Below, one piece after another: positions 4,564 to 47,933 of a DNA stretch of 64,000 nucleotides (position 1 is its first letter; every line of letters begins with the position of its first letter). The DNA is from Craspedostauros australis (taxonomy: Eukaryota > Bacillariophyta > Bacillariophyceae > Mastogloiales > Achnanthaceae), in contig JAMXDE010000006.1 of NCBI GenBank assembly GCA_026770025.1, positions 310,001 through 374,000 on the forward strand, in the 5' to 3' direction. The notes beneath the pieces were generated by a model. The model was given only the letters and a program-made list of their open reading frames with translations. It had not been told where the DNA came from and did no database searches. Made by a program: the position numbers and the translations under genes.

Positions 4564-7500
4564 CGACGAAAAGATCGAAAACGGATCCAAAACCATCACC
4601 ACAATCACAATGACGACAACGCAAACAGTTGATCAACGGACACAAATGAGGCAATCCATTGACGCAAACCCACAAGACACCATCCAACTGAGAGGCTCCC
4701 ACTGGCCCAGAGACATGAAGCACAGACGATCTGATGGATTTTAATCATGATCAAGATGCTTCAACTCCACTTCATGATCTCACTTGTATTCATTGTGCAA
4801 TACGATATAATATAATATAATATGTTGTTGGAGACCAAACGTACGATCGACTGGTATCATGAAAACCTCAATCTGAGCCAGAGATCATACATACTGCGAG
4901 TACAAGTACGAGTACGAGTACGAGAACGAGTAGGAGTGCGATCGTATTGTGACAGTCATACAAGGATGTATTTGTATGAAACAGAGTCGTCAACCCAAAC
5001 AACGAAGTATGTGCGTGAGATCAACCAAGCCACACACAAGCCTTCCACTTGTGCTTGCGCTTGCGCTTGTGCCTCTCTCCACTCATAAAAAACAATCAAG
5101 ACCATACTCACAATCACAATCACAGCCAATACCACAAAGGCTCAACCATCGGAACCAACCACACCCTCGCAACGACAACAGCAGGTGAGAAGTCCCGGAG
5201 AAAGCACACGCCGCTGCACCTGCAGGTACCAAATGCTGACAACACTGCATAACACCAACACTTCGTCAATTCATCTCAAGCCAAAGCAAGTCAAACCAAA
5301 ACAAGTCAAGTCAAAGCGATCGCAATCAGATACATCATCGTTGCTTCCGCCAACACCAACATCAATACCAACGTCAACGTCAACACCGGGACTCTGCTGC
5401 CTCCTGCCGGTACCGTTCCGTTGCCTCCAACAGTTTCATTGAACAACCATCAACAGAAACATGTCAGAGCCAGAGTCGATGGACGTCCACGTTCCAGCGC
5501 CAATGGTGGAGGATGAAGAAACACTTGCCACCCTTAATCCGATTCTCGATAGCGTAGACTTCTGGTCTGGCATGTGGAATCTCGAAACACCTGAAATGCA
5601 AACGCTGATAAAGGCAGACATCGAGGAACGCCGACGAAAACAAGGTGCGAACGAACCAACGCAGATTCCTGATAGTTGGCTCCAAAGGAGAACTCGCGCC
5701 GAGACATCTCACAGACAGTCCATTCTAAATCTGATCAGCAAGTGTGGTGGCGACTTCTCGGATTTGGAGGATGATCTCTTGGTATACACAATGTGGTATG
5801 GCCACCTCATGGCCGGCCGATGGCTCCTGGCTTGGCTTCGTGTCCACGGAACAGTCCATCATGGTGTCCTCTCCGTTGCGCGTCAACTCAACGAAGATCG
5901 CAAGCTCATCGACCCCGCCAAGCCCCGAGAATCGGTTCTCAAACTGTTGAACAAGATCCACGATAACAACAACACCAAAGGTTTTCAAGGTCTAAGGTAC
6001 GAGTCCTACCGGCACGTGTTAGATTGTGACGGTTGTGTCTACTACATCGGCAGCCCCGACTTTCGACATGAAGGAAGGCCCAACACATCTCCAACACAGA
6101 TCTTCATCAGTTGCCATAACCGAGACCGTTATGGCAAAACTATAGTCCATGTGTACAATCAGGAGAGAGGTAGTGGGAAGACTGTGGAGCTCGCGGCGAG
6201 CAGCTACACAAGAGAGGCTCTCTTCACCATCATGTTGACTGATGTGGAAGATGTGCCGTTGATTCCTGATGGTCACAGCGCTCTAAGTCGCGGCAATGGG
6301 ATGTCGACGTATACCCAGTGTGAATACAGAGAAAGAGATTCTCTGCTTTTCCTTGCATCGAAAATCAAATCAACTTTGATGCAGGATGAATCCAACTTCA
6401 AGAGGTTTCGCAGCTTCTTACTGGATCTGGACGAGAAGCGTGAGTCACAGCGTGCAGCGCAGAGTGAGGCACAACGTGAGGCACAGCGTGAGGCACAACG
6501 TGGGCGTGACAGGGAGACCCTCCAGATCGTCGTTGCGATCGATGAAGCAAACAATTGCCCAAACCTCATCACAGCTATCATCGCAAAATACTCCTGGTTT
6601 GGGGAATTATTAGGACTGTTCATCATGCATGGATGCCCCGATGATGCATTGCAATTCGAAAGTCATCCAGCGGATGTCCATTCTCCAACACCTCTCAAGC
6701 TCAGATCTCTCAAAAGTCCATTGAAAACGCTGCATGTCAGAGTCCTGTTCTCCATTGCTGCAGCTGATGTGGCGCAATATATCACGGGAGAAGCGATCCA
6801 CAGGTATAAATGCTACAGCACTTCAGCAAAAGAAGAACCCAGAGGAGTCTACGGAGTCCTCAACAGAATGGAATGGGGCTCGGTGGACTCGTACAGAGAG
6901 ATGTATGAATTCCCTCTCGTCAATGCCATCATTTCTACAAACGCACGCATGGCCTCCATCTTCGTGGCTGTACTCAAGCGCAAGCGCTCCAACAACAAGA
7001 AACCAAACAAAAACCCACAAGAGCAGAATGATATCATCTCGGAGGTCTTTGCCACATTCATGCGGGACGCTGCCTTGAAGGATCTCATGAACGATCCCAG
7101 TCGTCGAGTGCTCGTGGCATCGCGTGTACTCGCAACTCTTCTCTTCCAATCGACAAGAAGGCCAGCAGAGAATTCAGAGTTCATCGCCAGAACATACCAG
7201 ATGGAGTATGCGATCAAGTTCGAACGCTTCGATACTGACACGGCTCAGTTCCTCATGCGTGAGCTGGTCGTTGACTATGGATTGATGGGTACCACTCGGT
7301 GGAACGGGTGCCCGTTCCCGGTCAGTGATGCCATGCAACTGATGTGCCTTTGGTTGCTTCAAGGCGGTTCACATGTCACATCCTCCAGCACATCCTCCAG
7401 CTCGTTGTTGGGAGCCTCACCACGCAATTTTGGGACGTTGACGACCTTGATGGTCGGCGCTGCTGTTGCTGCATGGATGGCGGTCGCTGAAGATCGACGA

Positions 7501-8623
7501 AAGGACATCAGGTGTGCTCTGGCCAAGGTGGGAATAGGGTTTTTCAATCGGACTGTGAGGACGAGCGTAATAGCTAGCTGCAGAGAGACACATTCTGCGA
7601 GCGAAGGTGCATCGAATCAAGGTGCATCGAACACACGCAAGGCATGGGACGAGTGGGCGGCATGGGCCGGTGTGCAACCAGTGACACTGTCCTCCGACCT
7701 CAACATCACCAACACATACTTCCACGAGTCCAAGACGAGTCTCCACAAGCTGGCCGGGGTCGATGGAGAACGCATCCACACCATGACTGGGAGTTCCGGA
7801 GTGTGGCGTCACGTTCCCGACTTGGTGTCTCACCGAGATGCTCAAACCCAGCACCTTTCGATGAACGATGACACCAAACCACTGTCCTCTCAAATGTTGC
7901 GCGAAGAACACACCGCGCTTCTGATGGACACCGATCTTCGGAAACATCTCGCGGATTTGAGCAATGGACAAGCAGGTGATACGAAGATCTTCAACATGCC
8001 CATCATCAGCGTTGCGCAAAGCGATGGCCATTTCGCCGATGGCTACGTCACCTTCCTTGGACGCAGAATGGACAAAGGAGGGATGTCCAGTGGTCCGCAC
8101 GAGCTGTTCACTATCTGTATCCAGAACAGAAACTACTTTGAGAATGAGATGGATGCTGAGAGCATCCGAAAGACTGCGAGCAACGAGGGGTTGAGCAACA
8201 AGGAGCTTGATCGCCCGCTTGGCATGAATCGACTGTACTGTGTGGCACGTCGAGAAAGTGACGTTGCTCGAGACTGTGAGCAAGTCCCTCCTGGTATGTA
8301 CACTCCGTATGTTGCTGACAAGTCGTGCATTCTGAGGAGCCCGGAGGAGTCACTGTTCTCGTATGATTGCTACAGTGAACACACGAGGCCTCAGCGCGAC
8401 GCGTGGGGACCAATTGTGTCCAGATGGTGAGCTGTGTGGTTGTCCCGCAGCGATTGGGGATTGGAAGCTGGAATAGTATGTACTAGTATGTACTCTAGTA
8501 TGTACGAGTGATGGAAGACGAAAGGCGCAGTTGTTGGTGTGCGTGGCACTGCCGCATCGAGATGGCTGATGATTGGTGGTGATGGTGGAATGGAGACGGA
8601 GGCGGAGAATGAATGACGAAGCG
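4564..8623 (+). repeat. Duplicated 4.06 kb unit, copy A (direct orientation)
   Basis: This segment matches 43916-47933 in inverted orientation. Similarity starts abruptly at CGACGAAAAGATCG and stops abruptly after GAATGACGAAGCG. It covers about 900 bp upstream of the NTPase gene, the whole CDS and about 190 bp downstream, so it is a complete transcription unit. Non-coding parts are nearly identical by eye, differing mainly by small indels: a TATAA run near 4806-4823, GTACGA-type hexamers near 4893-4935, and a 12-base difference in the GTATGTACT repeats near 8477-8507. No terminal inverted repeats, poly(A) tail or target-site duplication were found. The hexamer GACGAA lies close to both ends in both copies. 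It may be a segmental duplication or an unrecognised mobile unit. Confidence 0.9.
5461..8430 (+). CDS. Large P-loop NTPase-like protein, copy A (989 aa), possible Crinkler/RHS-like NTPase
   Basis: This single-exon protein has no close family I can name. A Walker A-like segment, RGSGKT, sits at 236-241; the classical first glycine of GxxxxGKT is replaced by Gln234. A Walker B-like stretch, IVVAIDEA, lies at 356-363. This order and about 115-residue spacing resemble the NTPase module of Crinkler/RHS-type proteins of oomycetes, fungi and other protists, where SGKT is followed by a DEA(H) box; that link is inference. Between them are RESQR/REAQR repeats (about 327-348), probably a charged helix. 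A short hydrophobic stretch near residue 670 (TLMVGAAVAAWMAVA) could be a buried helix. No signal peptide or nuclease motif is evident. A conserved C-terminal block includes MPIISVAQSDGHFADGY. The paralogue at 44097-47051 is also intact. Replacements cluster at about 181-193, 217-229, 277-288 and 376-500. Confidence 0.85.
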   Translation: MSEPESMDVHVPAPMVEDEETLATLNPILDSVDFWSGMWNLETPEMQTLIKADIEERRRKQGANEPTQIPDSWLQRRTRAETSHRQSILNLISKCGGDFSDLEDDLLVYTMWYGHLMAGRWLLAWLRVHGTVHHGVLSVARQLNEDRKLIDPAKPRESVLKLLNKIHDNNNTKGFQGLRYESYRHVLDCDGCVYYIGSPDFRHEGRPNTSPTQIFISCHNRDRYGKTIVHVYNQERGSGKTVELAASSYTREALFTIMLTDVEDVPLIPDGHSALSRGNGMSTYTQCEYRERDSLLFLASKIKSTLMQDESNFKRFRSFLLDLDEKRESQRAAQSEAQREAQREAQRGRDRETLQIVVAIDEANNCPNLITAIIAKYSWFGELLGLFIMHGCPDDALQFESHPADVHSPTPLKLRSLKSPLKTLHVRVLFSIAAADVAQYITGEAIHRYKCYSTSAKEEPRGVYGVLNRMEWGSVDSYREMYEFPLVNAIISTNARMASIFVAVLKRKRSNNKKPNKNPQEQNDIISEVFATFMRDAALKDLMNDPSRRVLVASRVLATLLFQSTRRPAENSEFIARTYQMEYAIKFERFDTDTAQFLMRELVVDYGLMGTTRWNGCPFPVSDAMQLMCLWLLQGGSHVTSSSTSSSSLLGASPRNFGTLTTLMVGAAVAAWMAVAEDRRKDIRCALAKVGIGFFNRTVRTSVIASCRETHSASEGASNQGASNTRKAWDEWAAWAGVQPVTLSSDLNITNTYFHESKTSLHKLAGVDGERIHTMTGSSGVWRHVPDLVSHRDAQTQHLSMNDDTKPLSSQMLREEHTALLMDTDLRKHLADLSNGQAGDTKIFNMPIISVAQSDGHFADGYVTFLGRRMDKGGMSSGPHELFTICIQNRNYFENEMDAESIRKTASNEGLSNKELDRPLGMNRLYCVARRESDVARDCEQVPPGMYTPYVADKSCILRSPEESLFSYDCYSEHTRPQRDAWGPIVSRW

Positions 8624-9025
8624 GACTATTATGACGACGTAAACGCAATTCGATATGCATAGGATAACATTTAACACTTGGGTGCAAATATCAACAATGA
8701 TCCGGTTGTTGTAAACCATCGTTGTCTCGTTCGAGTCTGGTACGAGTTAGAGTATGTCGTCACCTTCTCGCTCTCGTGGAGTATCGCGATCTCTATCTTT
8801 CATCGCGTAGACTTTGGGATGAAGTTCCACCACAACCACACAAACGCCATGGCCAAGATTTGTCCTTTCCATTTTTGCCCCCCATCGCTCCCTTCCGTCA
8901 CTCACGCAATTTGTGAGCAATCCCATACCCATCCTTCCCCAACATTTCACTTCACTTCACTCCATCTCACATCAATTCCACACAAGATCAACCAATCGCA
9001 AACCAACTGCAAAGCAAAATTGACC
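8624..9025. other. Intergenic, upstream of SDR gene
   Basis: This is a unique sequence from the right edge of the duplicated unit to the SDR start. The SDR frame happens to stay open back to 8678, but the translation lacks family similarity and precedes the signal peptide, so it is taken as promoter and 5' leader. ACTTCACTTCACT-like repeats occur near 8949-8962. Confidence 0.5.
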
Positions 9026-10225
9026 ATGGTGTACCGAGTCACCAGAGCCGCACTCAGTGGCATCATTATCGTGCAAATACTACTGGGCGTAGCATGCCTC
9101 CCATCAGCACAATCGTTGGCATTCAATGCGAAGCAGAAGACGGTGTCTGTGGTCACCGGTGCCAACGGCTACGTCGGACGTGCGGTGGTGGAGTCCCTTC
9201 TCGAGACAGACAGGGAAGATCTCGAGGGAAGCAACGACAGCGAAGATGGACACCACACCATCTACTGCCTGGTGCGAGAGCGGCGAATTGCGGAAGAGGC
9301 CGAGTATTGGAGCACCAGATCGAGCTCCATCCACGTCCTGCCATACGACATGTTGGATGGCGGCGCCTCCATCCAAAAGGCGCTGGAACAGGTGTATGCT
9401 GCAAAAACAAACAATGATGGTGATGGTGATGGTGAGGAGGACGCCACCGACATTTGTGTGTATCACATCGCATCCTCGTTCGGACCGACCAAGGATCATG
9501 TGCAAACAGCCAACGAGAATGTGAAAGGTACGGAAGACTTGGTCCGAACGGTCGGCCAATTCCCAAACTGCAAGCTCGTTCTCACATCCTCCATGGCAGC
9601 TGTGCGGGGATCTGGCCAGATCCCGCTCAACGGCAAATGCTACACGAACAAGGACTGGAACACGATTTCCAACTTGGGCGACAACTGGGGATCCAGCTAC
9701 CAATGGTCCAAGGCGCAATCGGAACAGCGTGCTTGGGACATCGCCAAGGAACTGGGCGTTGCCATGACCACCATCTGCCCGGCCTTCGTGTTCGGGCCAC
9801 CGCCGGGTGGACTGTCGACCAGTTCCTATTCCATCACGTTGGTGCGACAATGGTCCAAGGGTGAATCGCAGGTGCAGAGCCGGCTGTGCGTGGATGTTCG
9901 CGATGTGGCACTGGCGCATGTGCGTGCGGGACGGCAACAGATCCTGGGGCAGCGGTACATCGTATCGCGCGATGCTCGCGTCACGTCCCAAGCGACGGCG
10001 GAAGCCTTGAGACGCGTTTGTGTGGAACAGGGCGTGGGCAATGCCGACAGTATCACGTTCGATGCGGAATTCGCGGGTGGTTCCATTCCTATTGGAGAGC
10101 AGGAGGTGGATGCTGAGCAGCGTCTGAAGGAAGAGCTTGGCGTAGAATTGCGGTCAGTGGAAGATACCATGTCGGACATGTGCCGTGCTTTGTTGGACAT
10201 GGAGCAGAATAAAAGTATGATCTGA
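9026..10225 (+). CDS. Plastid-targeted NAD(P)-dependent epimerase/reductase (extended SDR, DFR-like)
   Basis: This 399-residue protein belongs to the extended short-chain dehydrogenase/reductase group. After a signal peptide (MVYRVTRAALSGIIIVQILL) and a SLAFNAK junction typical of plastid import, the Rossmann fold begins with VSVVTGANGYVGRAV (TGxxGxxG at about 44-51). A catalytic Ser is likely in LVLTSSMAAV, and YQWSK provides the YxxxK pair. The best match by eye is to dihydroflavonol reductase/cinnamoyl-CoA reductase-like enzymes, which reduce a carbonyl with NADPH; the real substrate is unknown. An Asp/Gly-rich insert (GDGDGEED) interrupts the fold after the second strand. ATG 9026 is preferred over in-frame upstream ATGs because it starts the signal peptide. 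It converges with the PUS7 gene, whose stop is about 200 bp away. Confidence 0.85.
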   Translation: MVYRVTRAALSGIIIVQILLGVACLPSAQSLAFNAKQKTVSVVTGANGYVGRAVVESLLETDREDLEGSNDSEDGHHTIYCLVRERRIAEEAEYWSTRSSSIHVLPYDMLDGGASIQKALEQVYAAKTNNDGDGDGEEDATDICVYHIASSFGPTKDHVQTANENVKGTEDLVRTVGQFPNCKLVLTSSMAAVRGSGQIPLNGKCYTNKDWNTISNLGDNWGSSYQWSKAQSEQRAWDIAKELGVAMTTICPAFVFGPPPGGLSTSSYSITLVRQWSKGESQVQSRLCVDVRDVALAHVRAGRQQILGQRYIVSRDARVTSQATAEALRRVCVEQGVGNADSITFDAEFAGGSIPIGEQEVDAEQRLKEELGVELRSVEDTMSDMCRALLDMEQNKSMI

Positions 10226-10426
10226 TCAAAGTAATGCTCGACTGTTATTCGAAGAGACGCAACGAGATGAAAACGATCGAGGTTAGCTTTACCGGAGTGG
10301 CAAGGTAACGATTCAGAGCAGGACAAGGAGGAACCATGTCATCCTTTGGAACAGCTGGCTCTCTTCCATCCCGACTCCTCCGTCCTTGTGGAACTGCACT
10401 ACCAGCGATCCCTCTCTGGAGAGAGC

Positions 10427-13084
10427 CTATGCTGCATCTTTCGACTCTCTTTCGTCCTTCGTTGGCAAGGTTCGCGTTGCGGTCTTGACCATGAATTCGC
10501 GCAGCATCATGGTCGCGTAGGATCCTTTCTGCAATTCAAAGCTGAGTTTCACTGCATCTACTCCCGCAGCAGCATCGTCATCATTCACAGCAGCTCCTGT
10601 CATCGATTTCAAGCATTCCACTTCCATATTCGTCGGCATGCAAATGAGGGACCGATAGCCACCCTTGGCTGTGGATTCGGCTGGTTTATCCTTGACGAAT
10701 TCTACCCCATCCTTTTCGAGGATCTCTTTGTAGACATCGCCGATTTCGTTCCGGGGATACTGGACGTTGAATCCAGGTACAGGTAGAATGATTTGGGGAA
10801 ATGCGACCTCGCTTTTGGGCGTGTCTTGCCCCACCACTTTCACCTGCCGGACAGAATCGTAATACAGATCACCTTCCATCACCGCCGTTCCAAACCGTTG
10901 GATCCGCTGCGTCGCGACGCGGTTCCAAACGAAGGATTGGTAGGCATGGATCCAGAGCATCCGCATGCCGTAGTTGACGCACCGGATTACTTCCAACGGC
11001 CGGTCCTTACCGTACCGCTGCAGCCCTTTCAAGATGGCGCGTTCACGAGGAAAACTGTGACCACGCGATCGCGGCATGGCGCGCAATGTGGCATGCCAGT
11101 CACCTTGCGTGTGAATCCAGATCTGACGGAATTTGGGGATATCGGTGCTGCCGTTTGAAGACACCGTCCGACCACGAAGGACGCAATCCATGGCCTCGTT
11201 GAATTTGCCTTGCAACATGAGTCGCCCAATATCGCAACCGCGGAATCCGGTCGGACCTGGTGTGCCGACACGTTGATCTCCGAAGAAATTGATGAATCCG
11301 TGCTTGACTATGCGCTGGTGCATGCTGCACAGATGCGATTCAGAACAAGGTCGGTAGGTTTCGTTGTGAGAAGAGTCCACATGAATGCGCCGCAGATTGC
11401 GGACGGTAATTTCGAATGCATTGCCGTGCAACTCGCCATTATTCAATGCCCAGGGTACCTTGTACAAGGGCTTGACTTGGATGTTGGAATGCAACGCATT
11501 GCGGTTGTTGTGTATTCGGATGGGACTCTTCCTCTGAAATGTGCAAAATTGATACGTGATGGCCTGCATGTCCTTGATGCCCGCCAAGCCAATGTCAGAT
11601 GGACGGCATTTAAATGCTTGGGACATTGCTTGAATTGCGGTCAGGTGCTCCGTTTGGCGCTTTTTCATGACGCAGAGGCAATTCGGATTCGCGTCGCTCG
11701 GTTGCTGTGAATGGTTCTGTGGTCCATTCTTCCTCGCCTTTTTGCGTGCCTTTTGGACGGCCTGTCTCGACCATTGCACGGTGATCGCTGTGGTCGTTGC
11801 CTGAGTTTGTGTTTTCCCGTTGGGATTGGTTGATGCGACAGATGGAATGGGGTAGTTGGTGTCGGTGCCCGTGTGAAAGTCACGGCAGATATCTGAGATG
11901 ATTGAATGGATCTGACGGCGCTCACCTTTATCCAAGTTGGGCCTCAGCCTCAGAATCGCGGTGTTTCGCGAGTTTCCCTTTCCTCCTCCCTTCATTCTGC
12001 CATCGCGATGTCGTTTGCCTTCTTTTTGTGGTGTGGGCGTTGGCAAGGGCGATGCCTGCGGAGGCTCTTGAGGTGCCGTTGTGGCCTGCGCCAAAGGTGG
12101 GACATAATTGGCACCTCGTAATCGGAAGATTGCGAATTGCTGCAAGTCTTCGCTGCAGAACAGTAAGAATGGAACGAGCTGATCGTAGTCGCCATCGATC
12201 GTGATATTGATGATCTGCTGCTTGCTTCCATCTGGACCATCGGTTTCGCCTGTTTTGGATTTGAGAAGCGGGAACTCTTCCTTGAGATACTTGTGGATCT
12301 GCCTTCTCCAATCTCGAATGGCGCTGTTGCTGGCCTTGTCGGCATCTTTTGAATTTGGCAGAGACGGGATGCTGATTGGTGCGGTATGAGACAGATCTTT
12401 GGATTCTTCAACTTCCATGTTCTGCGTACTCGACGAAGATGAGAGTTGATCGAGCTTCCTTTGGTGCAGCACCTGCAATTGCTGCAGGATCTCATCCACG
12501 CGTGACATTGTGGTGGGTTTATCCTCTGCAGTATCGCCCCCATCTTCTGCAGAAACGCTGTTCGTAGTGCTACTCGCAGCGTGTGCATCACTATTCGAAA
12601 TAATGGTTGGAGAGAACACCTCAGTCAAACACTCTCGCAAGGATGAAAATTGCTTGGTCTCCTCTGCTTTCACGTCATGCTCCGCCTTCGTCGGCGCTTG
12701 TTCACCATCTGCCTTCGCTCCTCGCGATGTCGATGCATCTGAATCGAATGATTGTTCCACCAATTCGGTCAATTCAAATGCCTCCCTCGCACGTGCCACC
12801 AGACGACAGCTCTCTGTGCTCAATCCCGGAATCGTTCGGTCCGCTGCTGCAACTTCCGAGACGATGAAATCCTCGGGCGTTGTCTTCATCACGCCGTGAA
12901 CCTCCCACGAGTCGAAGCTTGGATCTGAAGCTGCGGCTGAGTCGGCATCTCCCGCCTTGACTAGGTATTGGCCCAACAACGGATGATCGGGTGGATCCAG
13001 GAACACATCGCCAATCCCGATGGTCGAAAAGTGATGGGTCAAGAGAAAGTCAGGACTGTCGATCACGTCTTGTTCGTTCGTCAT
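10427..13084 (-). CDS. PUS7: tRNA/mRNA pseudouridine synthase PUS7 (TruD family)
   Basis: This 885-residue single-exon protein converts uridine to pseudouridine in tRNA and other RNAs. TruD/PUS7 hallmarks are in order: PEDFIVSEV near 70-78, LRPNLDKGERRQIH near 380-393, the catalytic motif GLAGIKDMQAIT with Asp505, and INFFGDQRVGT. The TRUD insertion domain (RTVSSNGSTDIPKFRQIW to the EFVKDKPAE region) is present. Low-complexity stretches at about 112-260 and 336-372 make it longer than yeast Pus7 (676 aa); the first separates PEDFIV from the core. The N-terminus has no obvious targeting sequence, so nucleus or cytosol is expected. A TGACGTCA palindrome lies 232 bp upstream. Confidence 0.93.
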   Translation of the reverse strand: MTNEQDVIDSPDFLLTHHFSTIGIGDVFLDPPDHPLLGQYLVKAGDADSAAASDPSFDSWEVHGVMKTTPEDFIVSEVAAADRTIPGLSTESCRLVARAREAFELTELVEQSFDSDASTSRGAKADGEQAPTKAEHDVKAEETKQFSSLRECLTEVFSPTIISNSDAHAASSTTNSVSAEDGGDTAEDKPTTMSRVDEILQQLQVLHQRKLDQLSSSSSTQNMEVEESKDLSHTAPISIPSLPNSKDADKASNSAIRDWRRQIHKYLKEEFPLLKSKTGETDGPDGSKQQIINITIDGDYDQLVPFLLFCSEDLQQFAIFRLRGANYVPPLAQATTAPQEPPQASPLPTPTPQKEGKRHRDGRMKGGGKGNSRNTAILRLRPNLDKGERRQIHSIISDICRDFHTGTDTNYPIPSVASTNPNGKTQTQATTTAITVQWSRQAVQKARKKARKNGPQNHSQQPSDANPNCLCVMKKRQTEHLTAIQAMSQAFKCRPSDIGLAGIKDMQAITYQFCTFQRKSPIRIHNNRNALHSNIQVKPLYKVPWALNNGELHGNAFEITVRNLRRIHVDSSHNETYRPCSESHLCSMHQRIVKHGFINFFGDQRVGTPGPTGFRGCDIGRLMLQGKFNEAMDCVLRGRTVSSNGSTDIPKFRQIWIHTQGDWHATLRAMPRSRGHSFPRERAILKGLQRYGKDRPLEVIRCVNYGMRMLWIHAYQSFVWNRVATQRIQRFGTAVMEGDLYYDSVRQVKVVGQDTPKSEVAFPQIILPVPGFNVQYPRNEIGDVYKEILEKDGVEFVKDKPAESTAKGGYRSLICMPTNMEVECLKSMTGAAVNDDDAAAGVDAVKLSFELQKGSYATMMLREFMVKTATRTLPTKDERESKDAA

Positions 13085-13152
13085 TGTGCGTGTCGATGCA
13101 GTGTGATGGTTGACTTTGTCACAGGATAGATATTCTGCGATTGCTTGCAGTG

Positions 13153-13200
13153 TGATGATGGTGATGATGATGATGGTGATGATGATAATGGTGATGATGG
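13153..13200. repeat. GAT-rich trinucleotide microsatellite
   Basis: An imperfect run of GATGAT and GGTGAT units lies 70-115 bp upstream of the PUS7 ATG, probably in the 5' leader or core promoter. Confidence 0.85.
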
Positions 13201-13315
13201 CGGGAGTGGATGCTGTGGTCGTATTTTGTGTTCACAAAGATACGAAATTGGTGGTGTCTTTGGTGGGACACGACGATTTCGCGCCATTTTTGGTTGGTTG
13301 CGCGAGCCACTTTGG

Positions 13316-15178: not shown

Positions 15179-17227
15179 TTACTGCCACATCTTGATGACT
15201 CCATCCCAGCCACATGAAAACACCATGGACGGTTCAAGCGGATGCCACACGCAACCAATCGCTGGTCCCTTTTCGTGTGCTCGGTACTTTTGCAAGACTC
15301 TGTTTTTGCCATTGTGCATGAGTTCAAATCCAAAACCAAGGTGTGCGTGTGAGATCAAAGTTTGCGATTGCGACAAGCCCCCATTCAGCCCCTCATCTCT
15401 TTGTGCGTAGAGAGTACCATCATTTCATTTCGTTGCATTCTGGCTCATCCAGTCAACAACAGCATCAAACGGAGAAGCCAGCACATACCCACATAACAAC
15501 AAGACAAAGACGAAACAACTGGCCAAGCACAACGCCACATACCTCGACTTCTTCCAATCCCAAAAGAACAGCTTGCCGTTGCCATCCCCGCTGGCCATGA
15601 ATCGTCCATCTGGACTGAAGGAGATGTTGCAAGCGTATCCCGCGACGTTGTGACCATTGAACTTCTTCTTCTTTTGGACGGCGAACTTGTTGCCTGCCTG
15701 CAGCACCGCGATGTGGTTGTCCAACGATTGCGCTGCGATATAACTGCCGGAAGGATGCAACGTCATGCTGGGCATCGAATGCATCGTGGGATCGGAGATG
15801 TACTTGATGGGGACGCCAATGTCCCACTCCCACACCAGCACCTTCTTGTCGTCGCTGCTGGTGACCATCTTGGTGCCGTGATCCTCGACGAACACAATGG
15901 CATTGACGGGCGCGAGATGGTGGTTGTACTCTTGCGTGACCTCGCCCGTGGTGCAGTCGTACGTCACGATGGTGTTGTCGCTGTTGCCGCAGACAAAGAA
16001 GTTGTCATCCTCGGGGTAGAACTCCACCACGTACGGAACCTGGCCGTTGGTGAAGGTGTTGAGGACCTTTCCGCTTTCGGTGCTCCACAGTCGCAGGTAG
16101 CGATCGAAGGATGCCGAGACGAAGCGGCTACCATCGTGGTTGAACTGAACATCGCGCACGGCAGCAGTGTGGCCTTCGTAGGTGCGCATCAGCTGCTTGG
16201 TCTGGACGGAGTACACGTTGCACTTTCCATCCAGTCCACCGCTCAGCAAGAGATGGCCCGTCTTCGGAGACAGACGAAGCCTCTGCACACCTTTCTCCTG
16301 CTTGGCGAATCGGTGCACGCACTTCTTCGGAACGAAACACTGATGATCGTCCATGTCCGGTCCATCACCGGCCAGCACTGATGCAAGGCCGGAAGGCGGA
16401 GCGATCCAGGACTGTCCCTTGTAGTTGACCTCTTCCTTGCCGAAGAACTGCGTCTTCGGTTCCATGGGTCCCTTTCCGTCTATCTTCGGTGGCAGCAGAT
16501 GCGCCATCTTGCGCTCCATGAGACGTTCGAAGGCGGATCCGGCCTCCCTCTCTTCCCGTTCGACGCCCTTCTGACGATCGCGCTCCTTGAGGAAAGCACG
16601 TTCCGCCTGCTGCTCCTCCGACAGACCTTCTGCTCCAAATCGAGCAACGTCCGAGATAGAATCGTTGGCGACCAACCGCTCCTCCTTCGACGGTGGACCC
16701 CAAACCCCGTACTCGACCTCATCATCGGAGCCTTGCACGAGCGCTTCCTTCTCCGCCTTGTCCACCTTGGCGCGTTTCCTTCTCTCCTCAGCGTCCTGGA
16801 ACTTCTCCAAACGCTTCGCCGTGTACCCCAACGTCGTTCTGCTGATGGCGCTGTCGTCCGGTCCGAGAGCTTGCCCCGAGTTCTGGAATCCCACCCGCTG
16901 TTTGGCGAAATTTCCCTGGTTGAACTGGAGGTTGGCCTGCAGCTTGCCCGGCTTCTTCGATGCCTTCGATGGGTCCATCGCCTGCGGTCCCTGGATGGGC
17001 TCCTCCAGCAGGGACGGATCGGACGGATCCGGACGCACGATGAGCTCGTTCATGTGCTTCCTGCGCGTCATGATGGAGACGGATGGCGCAGCATTCAACG
17101 CTCTGCGCGATGATCGCGAACCGGCGGCATTAGCATTGCTGATGCTTGTGACTGCGGTTGGATTCGTCTTTGCGTTGGCATCAGCCTTGTCGCTGGCGTC
17201 CGAGTCGTAGTCTCCCATCAAGTCCAT
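15179..17227 (-). CDS. CDC40: Pre-mRNA splicing factor PRP17/CDC40
   Basis: This WD40 protein of 601 aa acts at the second step of splicing. Exons are 17227-15543 and 15299-15179, with an intron of 243 nt close to the 3' end. The split codon (AG|A) restores KKSRVLQKYRAHEKG and the family-typical ending GCVWHPLEPSMVFSCGWDG. The N-terminal third is the disordered PRP17 leader (NELIVRPDPSDPSLLEEPIQG) with a charged helix (KERDRQKGVEREERE). The WD propeller starts near QCFVPKKCVHRF and includes GGLDGKCNVYSV, YEGHTAAVRDVQFNHDGSRF and SFDRYLRLW. If unspliced, the frame reads on into a hydrophobic intron translation, so the intron is needed for the real C-terminus. A decayed partial copy lies at about 49590-49860. 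Confidence 0.95.
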
Positions 17228-39219: not shown

Positions 39220-40023
39220 GTAGCTGAGATGGATGGGTTGGGCTCCATCATTCGATTCGATGGATGCGGGCTCATGCAAAAGCGCTGCGAAGATCCGATA
39301 CTGTGTTTCGCCTTCGGCATTACATGGCATAGTGTCCCATATCTGAATCAGCATGCATTCTTGCGCGTACGCCCGCCGCCCCCTTTTGCCTGCAAACATT
39401 CCTTGCAGCATCCACAAATATACGGAGGAGTGACTGATTGGTGGTGGGGTTTGACCTGCACAGGACCATCTTACCTGATGTGTCTTGCGAAGGTGTTCCC
39501 CTCCACCAAGGACTCTCCTGCCCTTTTTCGTTCCCGACACCGTGATCGATCCCATGCCACCAAACACAACCAACCATCTCATCTCTTGGTCTCTCAGCAA
39601 CATCATCAGCAGCCAGCGACACCATTCGATGAAGCACTCTGCAAGCACACGAAAAGAAAAGACAATGTACAATACACCACAACACAGCACAACATGAACA
39701 GAATAAGCAACGAGTAGGATGGACGGTAGAGTAAGATGGCAAACGATAGCATTACGGTTTACGGATCTGAAACTTTCGCTTCTTTCTGCCATGTTGCATT
39801 TTTGCTTCAGTTCTGCTTATTCCAGTTTCGCTTGCCTTGATTTTTGTTTCCTTTCGTTGGTCGAACCATCCACGCTCTCCTTGGTGATGGATGCTAAATG
39901 CCTTCACTATGAGATGGGATGGAAGAGGATGGGTGGTGGTGATTGGCAACTTCCAACAATGCGGAGAGCAGCGGATCAACAATTGCTGACAATGTCATGA
40001 TCATACTATACTCGCGTGTTTGC
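39220..40023. other. Convergent intergenic region
   Basis: This lies between the stops of DHH1 and the GST-HIT gene. It contains both 3' flanks. No gene or repeat stands out; frames on both strands are short. Confidence 0.5.
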
Positions 40024-41412: not shown

Positions 41413-41502
41413 CGCTATGGATGGAATAAAACGAGAGTAGAGTATGATAGTTGGGTTATTGGGGCTGAACCTTTGTATTATATTTGCTTCGATGTGCAGA
41501 TG

Positions 41503-41503
<1 letters not shown>

Positions 41504-41532
<29 letters not shown>
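41504..41532. repeat. (TC)n microsatellite
   Basis: An uninterrupted CT dinucleotide tract lies about 90-120 bp upstream of the GST-HIT start codon, reading as (GA)n on the coding strand. Confidence 0.9.
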
Positions 41533-41535
<3 letters not shown>

Positions 41536-41846
41536 GAATGAACGAGTGATGGGCGTGATGCGCACAGGATTGATGCGTTGATGGCTTCATTGGTGGCAGA
41601 TCTTCCATCCTGGAATGCCAATGATGTCACGGAGAGTACATAGGGTTGTGAAAATATGGTTTTGCACACGCCAGACAATTAATTGCGTTCAATCGCAGAA
41701 CCAGATTTTGGAAAGACCTATCTCGTGCCGAAAACGTGTCCACCCATCCACAAGATCGTTTGTCATCACAAAGTGAGTTGGAGCGTTCTGTCGTCATCAG
41801 CAATCCAACACAGAACAGAAGAAGCCACAAGAGGAATCGATGTTTC

Positions 41847-41882
41847 CTTTCTCTCTCTCTCTCTCTCGCTCTCTCTCGCTCG
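41847..41882. repeat. (TC)n microsatellite
   Basis: A CT dinucleotide tract broken by two CG steps lies about 100-135 bp upstream of the HAD hydrolase start codon. Its position mirrors the tract near the GST-HIT gene. Confidence 0.85.
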
Positions 41883-41983
41883 CTTGCAATCATAATCGCA
41901 CAAATCGACCGCAGCCACCGTTGACTTGAGGACTTTGATCACTAGGGATCTGTCACATTGTGATACAACGACGCTGAGAGACG

Positions 41984-43876
41984 ATGAATACAGCCAGGAT
42001 CCTTCCATCGGCATTCTGTATGATCCTCCCGCAAACGTTCGCTGTTGCGCTCAGATCAGGTGCATCCGTCCCATTCCTCGCAAGCCAAGCTGCCCCTGCT
42101 ACCCATAGTGGAATCGCAAGATCTTGTCTCGCACACCAGCGCATCCCACGCAACAGCCGGCTTCATTCTCGTCTGTTCGCATCTTTGGGACAAGGTTTCA
42201 ACGAACCACCATCCGAGACGCAGGACGAAGATCTGCAACGTTGGGAACGCATGTATGCCGAAGGCGAGATCAAGGAGATGATGTACGACCCCGATGCCGT
42301 GACGTCCGCCGAAGACGATAACATCGCATTTCAACCCAGCGAAGTACGTGTGATCTCCTTCGATTTGGATAATACCCTGTGGAACACGCCGGCATGCATC
42401 AACGCAGCCAACGACAAGCTCAACGCCAAATTGCAGGAAGATGGATTCGAATTGCCGAGGCGCGTGGAGCAAGTCATGGGAGATCTCTTCAAGGTGTCCA
42501 AATTGACGTACTGTCCGTTGCAGAAGGAAGAATCCGAAATCAAGGGGCCGGTATTGCTGACGCAGCTGCGCAAGGATGCCATTATGCACCTGGCCACTGA
42601 GCACAACGGCTATTCCATGGAACAGGCCATGCAGTACGCCGACACCACCTTTCAGGTCTGGACGGATGCCCGGCACGAAGCGATTCCTCAAAACTTTGCC
42701 GAATCCGTGGCGACGACCTTGCAGGCTCTCAAGGACAAGACGACTAAATCCGGAGCGAACATCGTCATTGGCGCCATCACGGACGGCAACTCGGATCCAA
42801 CCCGCATCGCAGAGATCGGCCATGTCTTTGATTTCACCGTCAACGCAGAAGAGGTGGGCATTGCCAAGCCCAGCAAGACGATCTATCTCGAAGCGATGCG
42901 ACGTGCCGCGCAGCTTCCGTCCCTCTGTGATATATTCGAGGCCGTCGATCTGGACGACATCAATGCGGTGGAGGCATCCTGCGGCAACTACTGGGTCCAT
43001 GTGGGTGACGACTTCACCAAGGACATTGTGGCAGGAAAGAGCATGCAGATGAGAACGATATGGGCGTTGGAATTGATCCGTGATAAGGTTGCACCTGATC
43101 CTGCCAACGAGAAGAAGAAGCTGACGTCATCGGATGTTGTCGATGAAGAAGCTCGATTGAAGGAGTTCATACAGACTGTTTCCGAAAAGACCAAGACGGA
43201 ACTGGCGATAGGCCCCAGCGACTACTTGTCCAGCTCCATCGAGGACGAATTTGTTGATGTTCGGCTGAACAAGTTCTCCGATATCGTCGACGTGATCGAC
43301 GGATGGATGATTGCTCCAGCCATCGCAAAGGCCTCAGCGCCCTCACCAGCGGACAACCCGTTGTCGATTGTGGATACAGAGTCCAAGGAACCGAGAATTG
43401 CCCCTGCCATTGCGTCCGAAGTCAAGAGAGAAAGTGATCAGCCAGCGGGTTCCGAGAAAATCACGACAGCATCGGCGGGAACAGCAGCACAAGGAGCAAC
43501 GAAAGGTCCGAACGGGGGCAAGGCAGCACCAAAGATCATTCGGTTGGTCCGCGATGCATACAGCATGGACGTCCCCGTTTTGTTCGGGGACCCTTCTTCC
43601 GTTCTCGTGAAAGAATTGATGGACATTGCGCAGAGCGACAAGTCCTCGGGTGTCTTCTCCTTCCCACAAGCCGACGTCGAAGGGCTGAGAATCGGCACCA
43701 CAGCGCTGTTCATCAAACTGGAAGGCACCGACTACGAATTTACGCGGGAGATCTTTCTGCGCATGACCATCGCGGATCTTTTGACTCTGTGGAGCGATGA
43801 CACGACGCAGATCCCGACACTTTCTCTGTCCATACGACCAGCGCCAGCTGCACCGGATGTTGGTAACATTTTCTAA
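41984..43876 (+). CDS. HAD-superfamily hydrolase with C-terminal extension, probably organellar
   Basis: This 630-residue single-exon protein contains a complete HAD phosphatase core. Motif I is VISFDLDNTLWNT (Asp127 nucleophile, Asp129), motif II is GAITDGNSD, motif III Lys is in EEVGIAKPSKTIY, and motif IV is WVHVGDDFTKDIVAG. The cap between motifs I and II is helical, as in C1-cap phosphoglycolate phosphatase/epoxide-hydrolase-like HADs. The N-terminus (MNTARILPSAFCMILPQTFA) is hydrophobic and followed by an Arg/Ser-rich stretch with RLFASLG, so an organelle presequence is likely. About 240 residues follow the core, with an Ala/Ser-rich linker and a second domain beginning IIRLVRDAYSMDVPVLFGDP and ending TLSLSIRPAP. 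The second domain is not recognised. The stop lies 39 bp from copy B of the duplicated unit. Confidence 0.88.
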   Translation: MNTARILPSAFCMILPQTFAVALRSGASVPFLASQAAPATHSGIARSCLAHQRIPRNSRLHSRLFASLGQGFNEPPSETQDEDLQRWERMYAEGEIKEMMYDPDAVTSAEDDNIAFQPSEVRVISFDLDNTLWNTPACINAANDKLNAKLQEDGFELPRRVEQVMGDLFKVSKLTYCPLQKEESEIKGPVLLTQLRKDAIMHLATEHNGYSMEQAMQYADTTFQVWTDARHEAIPQNFAESVATTLQALKDKTTKSGANIVIGAITDGNSDPTRIAEIGHVFDFTVNAEEVGIAKPSKTIYLEAMRRAAQLPSLCDIFEAVDLDDINAVEASCGNYWVHVGDDFTKDIVAGKSMQMRTIWALELIRDKVAPDPANEKKKLTSSDVVDEEARLKEFIQTVSEKTKTELAIGPSDYLSSSIEDEFVDVRLNKFSDIVDVIDGWMIAPAIAKASAPSPADNPLSIVDTESKEPRIAPAIASEVKRESDQPAGSEKITTASAGTAAQGATKGPNGGKAAPKIIRLVRDAYSMDVPVLFGDPSSVLVKELMDIAQSDKSSGVFSFPQADVEGLRIGTTALFIKLEGTDYEFTREIFLRMTIADLLTLWSDDTTQIPTLSLSIRPAPAAPDVGNIF

Positions 43877-43915
43877 GAGTAAAACACAATGCCAGAAAAG
43901 GCACGAATAGCGATG

Positions 43916-46900
43916 CGCTTCGTCATTCAATCTCCGTCTCCATCTCCATTCCACCATCACCACCAAGCATCAGCCATCTCGATGCGGCAGTGCCGCGCAC
44001 ACCAACAACTGCGCCTTTCGTCTTCCATCACTCGTACATACTAGTACATACTATTCCAGCTTCCAATCCCCAATCGCTGCGGGACAACCACACAGCTCAC
44101 CATCTGGGCACAATTGGTCCCCACGCGTCGCGCTGAAGCCTCAAGCGTTCACTGTAGCGAACATACGGGTACGGTGGCTCCTCCGGGCTCCTCAGAATGC
44201 ACGACTTGTCAGCAACATACGGAGTGTACAAACCAGGAGGGACTTGCTCACAGTCTCGAGCAACGTCACTTTCTCGACGTGCCACACAGTACAGTCGATT
44301 CATGCCAAGCGGGCGATCGAGCTCCTTGTTGCTCAACCTCTCGTTGCTCGCAGTCTTTCGGATGCTCTCAGCATCCATCTCATTCTCAAAGTAGTTTCTG
44401 TTCTGGATGCAGATGGTGAACAGCTCGTGCGGACCACTGGACACCCCTCCTTTGTCCATTCTGCGTCCAAGGAAGGTGACGTAGCCATCGGCGAAATGGC
44501 CATCGCTTTGCGCAACACTGATGATGGGCATGTTGAAGATCTTTGTATCGCCTGCTTGACCATTGCTCAAATCCGCGAGATGTTTCCGAAGATCGGTGTC
44601 CATCAGAAGCGCGGCGTGTTCTTCGCGCAACATTTGAGAGGACAGTGGTTTGGTGTCATCGTTCATCGAAAGGTGCTGGGTTTGATCATCTCCGTGAGAC
44701 ACCAAGTCGGGCACGTGGCGCCACACTCCGGAACTCCCAGTCATGCTGTGGATGTGTTCTCCATCGACCCCGGCCAGCTTGTGGAGACTCGTCTTGGACT
44801 CGTGGAAGTATGTATTGGTGATGTTGAGGTCGGAGGACAGTGTCACTGGTTGCACACCGGCCCATGCCGCCCACTCATCCCGCGCCTTGCGTGTGTTCGA
44901 TGCACCTTGATTCGATGCACCTTCGCTCGCAGGGTGTGTGTCTCTGCAGCTAGCTATTACGCTCGTCCTCACAGTCTGATTGAAAAACCCTATTCCTACC
45001 TTGGCCAGAGCACACCTGATGTCCATTCGTTGATCTTCAGCGACCGCCATCCACGCAGCAACAGCAGCGCCGACCATCAAGGTCGTCAACGTCCCAAAAT
45101 TGCGTGGCGAGGCTCCCAACAACGAGCTGGAGGATGCGCTGGAGGATGTGACATGTGAACCGCCTTGAAGCAACCAAAGGCACAACAGTTGCATGGCATC
45201 ACTGACCGGGAACAGGCACCCGTCCCACCGAGTGGTACCCATCAATCCATAGTCAACGACCAGCTCACGCATGAGGAACTGAGCCGTGTCAGTATCGAAG
45301 CGTTCGAACTTGATTGCAGACTCCATCTGGTATGGTCGGGCGATGAACTCTGACTTATGTGCTGGCCTTCTTGTCGATTGGAAGAGAAGAGTTGCGAGTA
45401 CACGCGATGCCACGAGCACTCGACGACTGGGATCGTCCATGAGATCCTTCAAGGCAGCGTCCCGCATGAATGTGGCAAAGACCTCCGAGATGATATCGTT
45501 CTGCTCTTGTGGGTTCTCGTGTGGGTTCTTATGTGGCTTCTTGTTGGCGAAGTGCTTGCGCTTGAGTACAGCCACGAAGATGGAGGCCATGCGTGCGTTG
45601 GTATAAATGATGGCCTTGACGAGAGGAAAATTGTAGATCTCTCTGTACGAGTCCAACGAGCCCCATTCCATTTTGCTGAGGAGTTTGTAGACTACTCCGG
45701 GTTCTTCTTTTGCTGACGTCTTGCGGCATTCATAGTTGTCGGACATTCTTCCCGTGGGATATTGCGTCACATCAGCTGCAGCTATGGAGAACAGGACTCT
45801 GACATCCAGCATTTTCAATGGATTTTCGAGATATCTGAGCTTGAGCGGCGTTGGAGAATGGACATCCGCTGGATGACTTTCGAATTGCAATGCATCATCG
45901 GGGCATCCATGCATGATGAAGCATCCTAACGTATACCCAAAGGAGGAGTATTCTTCGATGATAGCTGTGATGAGGTTTGGGCAATTGTTTGCTTCGTCGA
46001 TCGCAACGACGATCTGGAGGGTCTCCCTGTCACGCCCACGTTGTGCCTCACGCTGTGCCTCACTCTGCGCTGCACGCTGTGCCTCGCGCTTCTCGTCCAG
46101 ATCCAGTACGAAGCTGCGAAGCCTCTTGAAGTTGGATTCATCCTGCATCAAAGTTGATTTGATTTTCGATGCAAGGAAAAGCAGAGAATCTCTTTCTCTG
46201 TAGCTACGCTGGGTATACGTCGGCCTACTATCGCCGGGACTTAGAGCGCTGTGGCCATCAGGAATCAACGGCACATCTTCCACATCAGTCAGCATGATGG
46301 TGAAGAGAGCCTCTCTTGTGTAGCTGCTCGCCGCGAGCTCTACAGTCTTCCCACTACCTCTCTCCTGATTGTACACGTGGACTCCACCTTCGCAATAAGA
46401 GTCTCGCTCTTGCCGTTTGATGAAGACCTGTGTTGGAGATGTGTTGGGCCTTCCTTCATGTCGAAAGTCGGGGCTGCCGATGTAGTATGCACAATCGCCA
46501 CGATATGGCTGGTACGAGCTCGAGTTGTACCGTAGACCTTGAAAACCTTTGGTGTTGTTGTCATCGTGGATCTTGTTCAACAGTTTGAGAACCGATTTTC
46601 GGGGCTTGGCGGGGTCGATGAGCTTGCGATCTTCGTTGAGTTGACGCGCAACGGAGAGGACACCCTGAGGGACTGCTCCATGGACACGAAGCCAAGCCAG
46701 GAGCCATCGGCCGGCCATGAGGCGGTCATACCCCATTATGTACACCAAGAGATTATCCTCCAAATCCGAGAAGTCGTCATCACACTTGCTGATCAGATTT
46801 AGAATGGACTGTCTGAGAGATGACTCGGCGTGAGTTCTCCTTTGGAGCCAACTATCAGGAATCTGCGTTTGTTTTCGTCGGCGTTCCTCGATGTCTGCCT

Positions 46901-47933
46901 TTATCAGCGTTTGCATTTCAGGTGTTTCGAGATTCCACATGCCAGACCAGAAGTCCACACTATCGAGAATCGGATTAAGGGTGGCAAGCGTTTCTTCATC
47001 CTCCACCATTGGCACTGGAACGTGGACGCCCATCGACTCTGGCTCTGACATGTTTCTGTTGATGGTTGTTCAATGAAACTGCTGGAGGCGACGGAACGGT
47101 ACCGGCAGGAGGCAGCAGAGTCGTGGTGTTGACGTTGACGTTGGTATTGATGTTGGTGTCGATGTTGGCAGCAGCAACGACGATGTGTCTGATCGCGATC
47201 GCTTTGACTTGGTTTGGTTTGAGGTGAATTGACGAAGTGTTGGTGTTGTGCAGTGTTGTCAGCGGTTGGTACCTGCAGATGCAGCGGCGTGTGCTTTTTC
47301 CGGGACTTCTCACCTGCTGTTGGCGTTGCGAGGGTGTGGTTGGTTCCGATGGTTGAGCCTTTGTGGTATTGGCTGTGATTGTGATTGTGAGTATGGTCTT
47401 GATTGTTTTTATGAGTGGAGAGAGGCACAAGCGCAAGCGCAATCACAAGTGGAGGACTTATGTGTGGCTTGGTTGATCTCACGCACATACTTCGTTGTTT
47501 GGGTTGACGACTCTGTTTCATGAAATACATCCTTGTATGACTGTCACAATACGATCGTGCTTGTGCTCGCACTCCGACTCGTACTCGTACTCGTACTCGT
47601 ACTTGTACTCGCAGTATGTATGATCTCTGGCTCAGATTGAGGTTTTCATGATACCAGTCGATCGTACGTTTGTTCTCCAACAACATATTATATTACATCG
47701 TATTGCACAATGAATACAAGTGAGATCATGAAGTGGAGTTGAAGCATCTTGATCATGATTAAAATCCATCAGATCGTCTGTGATTCATGTCTCTGGGCCA
47801 GCGGGGGCCTCTCAGTTGGATGGTGTCTTGTGGGTTTGCGTCAATGGATTGCCTCATTTGTTTCCGTTGATCAACTGTTTGCGTTGTTGTGGTTGTGGTG
47901 GCAGTTTTGGATCCGTTTTCGATCTTTTCGTCG
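43916..47933 (-). repeat. Duplicated 4.02 kb unit, copy B (inverted orientation)
   Basis: This is the inverted counterpart of 4564-8623 and has the same end sequences. It starts (in its own orientation) at 47933 and ends at 43916, only 39 bp from the HAD stop codon, so the two genes are tail to tail. It carries the full upstream region (TATAA run, GTACGA-type hexamers near 47575-47615), the CDS and the 3' region. Flanking DNA differs from that of copy A on both sides. Confidence 0.9.
44097..47051 (-). CDS. Large P-loop NTPase-like protein, copy B (984 aa)
   Basis: This is the paralogue of the protein at 5461-8430, also intact in one exon. It keeps the Walker A-like RGSGKT and Walker B-like IVVAIDEA. 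Length differences are a five-residue GANEP gap near residue 61, one fewer QREA unit in the charged repeat, and an extra PHEN-type unit in the Lys/Asn/Pro-rich loop. By eye about 80 replacements fall in the first ~520 residues and about 30 in the last ~470. In the loop before Walker A, copy A reads ESYRHVLDCDGCV and copy B NSSSYQPYRGDCA, while the next 22 codons are identical even at silent sites. Function is unknown. Both copies seem able to be expressed since they share the same upstream DNA. Confidence 0.85.
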   Translation of the reverse strand: MSEPESMGVHVPVPMVEDEETLATLNPILDSVDFWSGMWNLETPEMQTLIKADIEERRRKQTQIPDSWLQRRTHAESSLRQSILNLISKCDDDFSDLEDNLLVYIMGYDRLMAGRWLLAWLRVHGAVPQGVLSVARQLNEDRKLIDPAKPRKSVLKLLNKIHDDNNTKGFQGLRYNSSSYQPYRGDCAYYIGSPDFRHEGRPNTSPTQVFIKRQERDSYCEGGVHVYNQERGSGKTVELAASSYTREALFTIMLTDVEDVPLIPDGHSALSPGDSRPTYTQRSYRERDSLLFLASKIKSTLMQDESNFKRLRSFVLDLDEKREAQRAAQSEAQREAQRGRDRETLQIVVAIDEANNCPNLITAIIEEYSSFGYTLGCFIMHGCPDDALQFESHPADVHSPTPLKLRYLENPLKMLDVRVLFSIAAADVTQYPTGRMSDNYECRKTSAKEEPGVVYKLLSKMEWGSLDSYREIYNFPLVKAIIYTNARMASIFVAVLKRKHFANKKPHKNPHENPQEQNDIISEVFATFMRDAALKDLMDDPSRRVLVASRVLATLLFQSTRRPAHKSEFIARPYQMESAIKFERFDTDTAQFLMRELVVDYGLMGTTRWDGCLFPVSDAMQLLCLWLLQGGSHVTSSSASSSSLLGASPRNFGTLTTLMVGAAVAAWMAVAEDQRMDIRCALAKVGIGFFNQTVRTSVIASCRDTHPASEGASNQGASNTRKARDEWAAWAGVQPVTLSSDLNITNTYFHESKTSLHKLAGVDGEHIHSMTGSSGVWRHVPDLVSHGDDQTQHLSMNDDTKPLSSQMLREEHAALLMDTDLRKHLADLSNGQAGDTKIFNMPIISVAQSDGHFADGYVTFLGRRMDKGGVSSGPHELFTICIQNRNYFENEMDAESIRKTASNERLSNKELDRPLGMNRLYCVARRESDVARDCEQVPPGLYTPYVADKSCILRSPEEPPYPYVRYSERLRLQRDAWGPIVPRW

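What the first reader, a model, noticed from the sequence alone, without database searches (positions are those of the whole stretch)
4564..47933. Two intact 4 kb transcription units encoding a giant P-loop NTPase, inverted, 35 kb apart
The unit at 4564-8623 recurs at 43916-47933 in opposite orientation with its promoter-side DNA (about 0.9 kb), its one-exon gene (989 and 984 aa) and its 3' region. Both reading frames are open. The unit sits among housekeeping genes with unrelated flanks at each site, so it moved or was copied as a block. I cannot name a matching family end to end. It is the best candidate in the window for an undescribed gene system or mobile unit.
Basis: partly seen in the sequence, partly recalled or inferred. 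Interest (0 to 1): 0.82.

Follow-up and report, generated by a model that had tools for sequence, protein, structure and literature searches.

The report
Duplicated member of shuffling algal NTPase family
The two matching 4 kb blocks are an inverted copy of one gene from a large, otherwise unclassified family of giant proteins with ATP-binding motifs in a silica-using alga, whose members appear to swap protein segments with one another; the blocks themselves do not look like a mobile element.

Summary
Observation confirmed: 4564-8623 (+) and 43916-47933 (-) align end to end at 91.9%, with unrelated flanks and open frames of 989 and 984 aa. The full unit was found twice in the 74.8 Mb genome. 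No terminal repeat or target-site duplication is visible, so I read it as an inverted segmental duplication, not a mobile unit. The gene is not a loner: protein searches find 63 loci as a lower bound, mostly huge single open frames; GxGKT and DEA are invariant in the 26 aligned. No convincing match in Pfam, NCBIfam, PADLOC, PHROGs or PDB. What is unusual is how the family evolves: almost identical paralogs differ in sharply bounded blocks (52 of 61 differences between L035 and L036 lie in 139 of 3222 bp), and different parts of a gene have different nearest relatives. In the window pair the flanks are better conserved (2.8-4.1% divergence) than the coding sequence (6.5%), dN/dS 0.89; this is not so in all pairs. 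Architecture and evolution resemble Crinkler/RHS-type families, but membership tests failed or were inconclusive. A conflict role is my best inference, unproven. The AlphaFold model was uninformative.

The parts
4564..5460 (+). 5' non-coding part of the duplicated block, copy A (897 bp)
   Evidence: 95.9% identical to copy B over 864 aligned bases; block edge
5461..8430 (+). Copy A gene, 989 aa, single open frame
   Evidence: dN 0.066, dS 0.075 against copy B; member of a family of at least 63 loci
6169..6183 (+). Walker A motif GSGKT (residues 237-241), copy A
   Evidence: G237, G239, K240, T241 invariant in 26 aligned members; alignment
6526..6549 (+). Walker B-like motif IVVAIDEA (residues 356-363), copy A
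   Evidence: D361, E362, A363 invariant in 26 aligned members
8038..8130 (+). C-terminal region from D860 to R890; D...QxK-like pattern in the family, but the lysine is R in both window copies
   Evidence: nuclease assignment is inference
8431..8623 (+). 3' non-coding part of the block, copy A (193 bp)
   Evidence: 97.2% identical to copy B over 181 aligned bases
43916..44096 (-). 3' non-coding part of the block, copy B (181 bp)
44097..47051 (-). Copy B gene, 984 aa, single open frame
47052..47933 (-). 5' non-coding part of the block, copy B (882 bp)

Best explanation
The two units are an inverted, intrachromosomal segmental duplication of one member of a large family of giant single-frame P-loop NTPase genes in a silicon-transporter-bearing stramenopile, probably a diatom. 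The family grows by block duplication of gene plus flanks, and diversifies by segment exchange between dispersed paralogs plus fast amino-acid change, mainly outside the NTPase motifs. Shown: duplication, family size (lower bound), mosaic relationships, fast evolution. Inferred: that recombination or gene conversion makes the mosaics; that the NTPase switches or drives a variable N-terminal head and a C-terminal domain with a D...QxK pattern (possible PD-(D/E)xK nuclease, with the K lost in the window copies); and that the family serves a biological conflict, such as action against invading nucleic acid or rivals, in the manner of Crinkler/RHS-type NTPase-nuclease proteins. I put the duplication/family/mosaic part at about 0.9 and the conflict-effector function at about 0.3.
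For: Two full copies found. 63 loci: 46 and 17 more (merged); none of the 89 match rows contains a stop. Invariant G-x-GKT, DEA and N-x-RM residues in the 26 aligned members. Window pair: dS 0.075, dN 0.066; flanks 4.1% and 2.8% diverged; changes clustered (19 of 117 amino-acid changes in 45 of 980 codons, reached by 0 of 2000 shuffles). L035/L036: 52 of 61 differences in nt 265-403 of 3222, no gaps; sequence further upstream and downstream is unrelated, so these are distinct loci. Four-way scans: over the first 450 columns L018 is 89-91% like L024 but 41-72% like L017, afterwards 91-100% like L017; L025 is 96-100% like L024 over columns 150-1050, but from column 2550 it is nearer L020/L021 (55-71%, 35-37% in the last bin) than L024 (36-50%). 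In one subfamily the 3' flank is in places better conserved than the coding sequence. Median omegas in 10 members of that subfamily: NTPase 0.58, head 0.93, pre-NTPase 1.38.
Against: No convincing profile match to any NTPase, nuclease, Crinkler or RHS family. The excess of nonsynonymous change in the hot patches is not significant by Fisher test (p 0.088 window pair, 0.055 L035/L036). 2 of 7 pairs tested show no clustering (L011/L013 186 of 2000 and L028/L033 549 of 2000 shuffles reach the value). Conserved flanks are not general: in L029/L030, L028/L033, L032/L034, L016/L017 and L011/L013 the 400 bp upstream differ more than dS. The C-terminal lysine is absent in 5 of 24 members, both window copies among them. 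No formal recombination test was run. The donor of the L036 block was not found; its best other match is 86%. No expression, localisation or activity data.
Confidence: 0.6

Rival explanations
1. A transposon-like mobile unit that carries the NTPase gene and moves as a 4 kb block.
For: Block copied with flanks to an unrelated site; one subfamily of about 15 shares about 750 bp of 5' and about 350 bp of 3' flank; NTPase plus REase pairs are said to be linked with prokaryotic transposable elements (PMC5289972, passages read).
Against: No terminal inverted repeat or target-site duplication seen; two copies of the unit found; duplication ends vary between pairs, from 112 bp to at least 1.4 kb upstream; subfamily flanks continue into alternative upstream types rather than one sharp end (output cut before its end).
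Confidence: 0.08
2. A cell-autonomous recognition (NLR/STAND-like) family: a variable head senses, the NTPase switches, the C-terminus acts.
For: Head region 30-130 is the most variable (29% median identity within a subfamily, against 51% for the NTPase); in 8 of 13 close pairs the 60-codon bin with most nonsynonymous change starts at reference residue 50-106.
Against: No NACHT, NB-ARC, LRR, WD40 or TPR family among the 10 Pfam families that any of 26 members match at E 0.1. The pairs were chosen for close identity and share members; 5 of 13 have their peak elsewhere (window pair 430, L024/L025 762, L011/L013 844, L033/L034 894, L028/L033 942).
Confidence: 0.2
3. A neutral, birth-and-death gene family under relaxed constraint with frequent gene conversion; no conflict role.
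For: omega near 1 in many pairs (0.45-1.52 in 13 pairs); some members broken: 4 of 72 match rows contain stops (C17, C75, C48, C78), and the C78 member is split by about 7.5 kb.
Against: Most members keep about 1000-codon open frames and the 26 aligned keep invariant NTPase motifs; the NTPase region has median omega 0.58 in one subfamily.
Confidence: 0.2
4. Assembly artefact: one copy is a misplaced duplicate of the other, or an allele.
For: Cannot be excluded from the assembly alone; C59:345359 and C70:19921 give identical scores near contig ends, so some family counts may be doubled.
Against: Both window copies on one contig, different flanks, 8% overall divergence with frame-preserving indels.
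Confidence: 0.03

Closest known systems
Crinkler-RHS-type (CR) NTPase-nuclease families of oomycetes, trypanosomes and others
   Same: Large dispersed families, P-loop NTPase, possible REase-like C-terminal motif, gene duplication with fragment recombination and omega near or above 1 as reported for P. sojae CRNs (PMC3726527, passages read)
   Different: No Crinkler header or RHSP profile match in 26 members; catalytic-type lysine not universal (19 of 24); no direct sequence comparison and no functional data
AAA_14 ATPase family (PF13173)
   Same: Weak match over the Walker B region, best E 0.0091 in the NTPase part, 0.056 in whole proteins
   Different: 13-16 bits against a cut-off of 27; 2 of 22 members match; unrelated DUF2529 (0.006) and DUF1989 (0.0078) score as well in the same call, so it carries little weight
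Variant gene families with segmental gene conversion (trypanosome VSG, Babesia ves1)
   Same: Segment exchange between family members (listing and abstract starts only)
   Different: Those are surface antigens; an expression site was not looked for here

Membership tests
Crinkler/RHS-type (CR) proteins | N-terminal Crinkler header (PF20147) | tested here: not met
   Not among the families matched by any of 26 members at E 0.1. A whole-genome search also found none, but its control genomes were silent too
Crinkler/RHS-type (CR) proteins | RHSP profile (PF07999) | tested here: not met
   Not among the families matched by any of 26 members at E 0.1; genome search 0, controls silent
Crinkler/RHS-type (CR) proteins | P-loop NTPase domain | tested here: met
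   Motif level only: GxGKT and DEA invariant in the 26 aligned members; no profile or fold confirmation
Crinkler/RHS-type (CR) proteins | REase (PD-(D/E)xK) nuclease domain | tested here: inconclusive
   D invariant, lysine kept in 19 of 24 members that reach it; R or E in the window copies, L023, L028, L033; Q replaced by K in L011 and L013. No PDB or Pfam match; AlphaFold pLDDT 28
STAND/NLR | NACHT or NB-ARC domain | tested here: not met
   No match in 26 members at E 0.1
DNA transposon or other mobile unit | terminal inverted repeats and target-site duplication | tested here: not met
   Sequence at all four window junctions read by eye; junctions of other members not checked
DNA transposon or other mobile unit | many near-identical copies | tested here: not met
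   Two full copies of the unit found (20 of 20 candidates scored)
DNA transposon or other mobile unit | empty sites in other strains | not testable with these tools
   No other strain or relative of this genome is held

The most novel reading that the evidence does not exclude
An undescribed, diatom-type cell-autonomous conflict system: at least 60 giant single-frame NTPases whose N-terminal heads and C-termini are reshuffled as cassettes between dispersed loci, giving a single-celled alga a recombining recognition or effector repertoire.
Probability: 0.2. Interest if true: 0.78.

Novelty: new variant of a known kind. Interest (0 to 1): 0.5.

Why it matters
How unicellular algae recognise or fight viruses, bacteria, parasites and mobile DNA is, to my knowledge, poorly known. 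A large, mostly intact, motif-conserved NTPase family that swaps segments between loci is a concrete candidate for such a repertoire and is testable in culture. If it proves neutral or housekeeping, it is still a clear example of apparent ectopic segment exchange between dispersed algal genes.

Tried and rejected
Mobile unit: rejected for lack of termini and copies. RNA families: none at gathering score in the window. Prokaryotic or viral relatives: none by the degenerate-pattern search in IMG/VR (11 pattern hits, 0 confirmed) or GTDB contigs (35 pattern hits, 0 confirmed). Profile searches of whole proteins and of the NTPase and C-terminal parts: nothing convincing. The one hit below 0.001, GerPC in 2 of 26 members (best E 0.00013), was not followed; the output does not name the members. 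Weak PADLOC hits (NsnC 0.0054, RtcR 0.01, PDC-M01B 0.018, Avs2 0.054; 1-2 members each) were taken as chance. AlphaFold on the two window proteins: mean pLDDT 28, no use made of it; no fold search was run. Diversifying selection in the hot patches: suggestive, not significant. Enrichment near contig ends: 9 of 30 loci within 60 kb against 14.4% expected, binomial 0.022; weak, and contig ends may themselves lie in repeats. Foreign origin: GC3 0.58-0.63 in the 26 members against 0.59-0.72 in five neighbours, no sign.

Literature: eight searches; no paper among those listed describes this family in a diatom, but most listings were partial (for example 15 of 38, 12 of 101, 8 of 38) and one search found none. 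Listings with abstract starts were seen; for five papers passages were seen; none was read whole. Zhang et al. 2016 on CR proteins is not held, so its content is taken from the review PMC5289972. No Crinkler or other effector sequence was fetched or typed as a yardstick, so homology to them was tested only through the Pfam profiles.

Rows dropped: of the 30 family loci fetched, four (L012, L022, L025, L031) were left out of the 26-member alignment A2, because their open frame was short, late-starting or cut by the end of the locus. L020 and L021 are cut before the C-terminus, leaving 24 there. A4 holds 22 of the 26 members and A5 21 of the 24; near-identical ones were left out. The 13 pairs were chosen for close identity and share members; clustering was tested in 7 of them. 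The medians use 10 members of one subfamily. The pair list shows only matches of 75% or more over 300 bases.

Full report
What is there. The window self-comparison gives one full-length repeat pair: 4564-8623 against 47933-43916, 91.9% identity, inverted, 35.3 kb apart. Each block holds one large open frame, 989 and 984 aa, 88% identical, with 897 and 882 bp of shared upstream and 193 and 181 bp of shared downstream DNA. The sequence beyond the ends looks unrelated; no terminal inverted repeat or target-site duplication is visible in the 150 bases read on each side. Of 10 neighbouring ORFs, 8 reach a Pfam cut-off and look ordinary.

How the copies differ. The non-coding flanks differ by 4.1% (5') and 2.8% (3'), while the coding sequence differs at 192 of 2940 aligned bases (6.5%); dS is 0.075 and dN 0.066, omega 0.89. 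The changes are not spread evenly: the densest 45-codon stretch has 19 of the 117 amino-acid changes, reached by 0 of 2000 shuffles; the densest 60-codon bins start at codons 186 and 430. The excess of nonsynonymous change there is not significant on its own (Fisher 0.088).

Copy number. The whole unit was found twice in the 74.8 Mb, 90-contig genome; the other DNA matches are partial. At protein level the gene belongs to a large family: 46 loci in the search with the window protein and 17 more in the search with a distant member, L035, taking the two C78 pieces as one locus (merged); two more short DNA matches turned up at C13:472 and C48:364443. These are lower bounds, since only the best candidates are scored (46 of 121 and 43 of 141); on the other hand C59:345359 and C70:19921 may be one locus. 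None of the 89 rows contains a stop. In one search, 4 of 72 rows do (C17, C75, C48, C78), and the C78 gene is split by about 7.5 kb. Some open frames are short, for example L031 with 493 codons. The genome also carries many silicon-transporter genes, so the organism is a silicifying stramenopile, most likely a diatom (Parmales, the sister group, have genomes of 31.0-43.6 Mb and 1-2 such genes; passages of PMC10328945). This placement is inference; no marker gene was compared.

The protein. In 26 aligned members the invariant residues include G237, G239, K240, T241 (Walker A), D361, E362, A363 (Walker B) and N494, R496, M497. The C-terminal part has A-D and, 20-30 residues on, Q-x-K in most members: of 24, the D is kept in all, the lysine in 19; the window copies and L023 have R, L028 and L033 E; L011 and L013 have K for Q. 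The spacing recalls PD-(D/E)xK nucleases (recalled, not borne out by any hit). No library gives a convincing family. The weak AAA_14 match (best E 0.0091) would fit a P-loop fold, but it is far below the cut-off and unrelated families score as well in the same call. The structure model is unusable (pLDDT 28). Four members (L028, L032-L034) begin with a hydrophobic stretch followed by A-A-F, which by recall looks like a diatom plastid or secretory signal; several others end in lysine/arginine-rich tails.

Mosaic evolution. L035 and L036, on different contigs with unrelated sequence further upstream and downstream, differ at 61 of 3222 coding bases, 52 of them between nt 265 and 403, without gaps. 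The L036 block is 86% like a fragment at C13:472, its best other match. Four-way scans show different relationships along the gene: L018 is 89-91% like L024 over the first 450 columns, where it is only 41-72% like L017, yet 91-100% like L017 afterwards; L025 is 96-100% like L024 over columns 150-1050, but its C-terminal part is nearer L020/L021; around column 2700 L032/L034 and L028/L033 pair up at 97%, while cross pairs are 60-64%. L024 and L025 lie on one contig, and so do L032, L033 and L034, so these are not alleles. Five of seven pairs tested show clustered amino-acid change (0 of 2000 shuffles); L011/L013 and L028/L033 do not. In 8 of 13 close pairs the 60-codon bin with most nonsynonymous change starts at reference residue 50-106, in 5 elsewhere. 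One subfamily (within L011-L027) shares about 750 bp of upstream and 350 bp of downstream sequence, in places better conserved than the coding part. But conserved flanks are not a rule: in five of the 13 pairs the 400 bp upstream differ more than dS. Median identity within ten members of that subfamily is 29% for the head, 51% for the NTPase and 66% for the following helical part; omega is lowest in the NTPase, 0.58.

Interpretation. Duplication ends differ between pairs, which speaks against a fixed mobile unit. The same habits, large dispersed families, duplication, fragment recombination and omega near or above 1, are reported for P. [quoted passage not shown] On that ground, and not by homology, I think a Crinkler/RHS-like conflict protein the most likely function, at about 0.3. 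An NLR-like receptor or a neutrally evolving family remain open.

Limits.

Noticed in passing
genome G000, e.g. L039, L040: Silicon transporter (PF03842) matches are very numerous: 88 matches, 32 of them near full length (at least 480 of 513 positions) and 28 of these without stops, where diatom genomes are said to have 3-8 genes (PMC10328945 passage) or typically 3-5 (PMC10700740 passage).
   Followed up: partly
L043 (G000:C49:376000-378500): A 2.5 kb stretch 4-6 kb upstream of family member L020 has 25 near-full-length copies (itself included) at 94-100% identity and further relatives at 70-71%, 40 of 307 candidates scored; a high-copy dispersed repeat, probably a transposable element.
   Followed up: partly
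G000:C78:42771-53471: A family member seems split by about 7.5 kb between query residues 441 and 445, with one stop: perhaps a member interrupted by an insertion.
   Followed up: no
G000:C59:345359-348052 and C70:19921-22614: Identical scores near contig ends; possibly one locus assembled twice.
   Followed up: no
L028, L032, L033, L034 N-termini: A hydrophobic methionine-rich start followed by VRSVAAF; may be a targeting signal.
   Followed up: no
L044 1-239 and L036 3786-4024: A 239-base stretch near L021 is 92% like DNA upstream of the L036 gene; a shared repeat outside the coding sequence.
   Followed up: no
window 15965-16087 and 49655-49782: A second, short inverted repeat pair in the window, 74.6% over 130 columns.
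   Followed up: no
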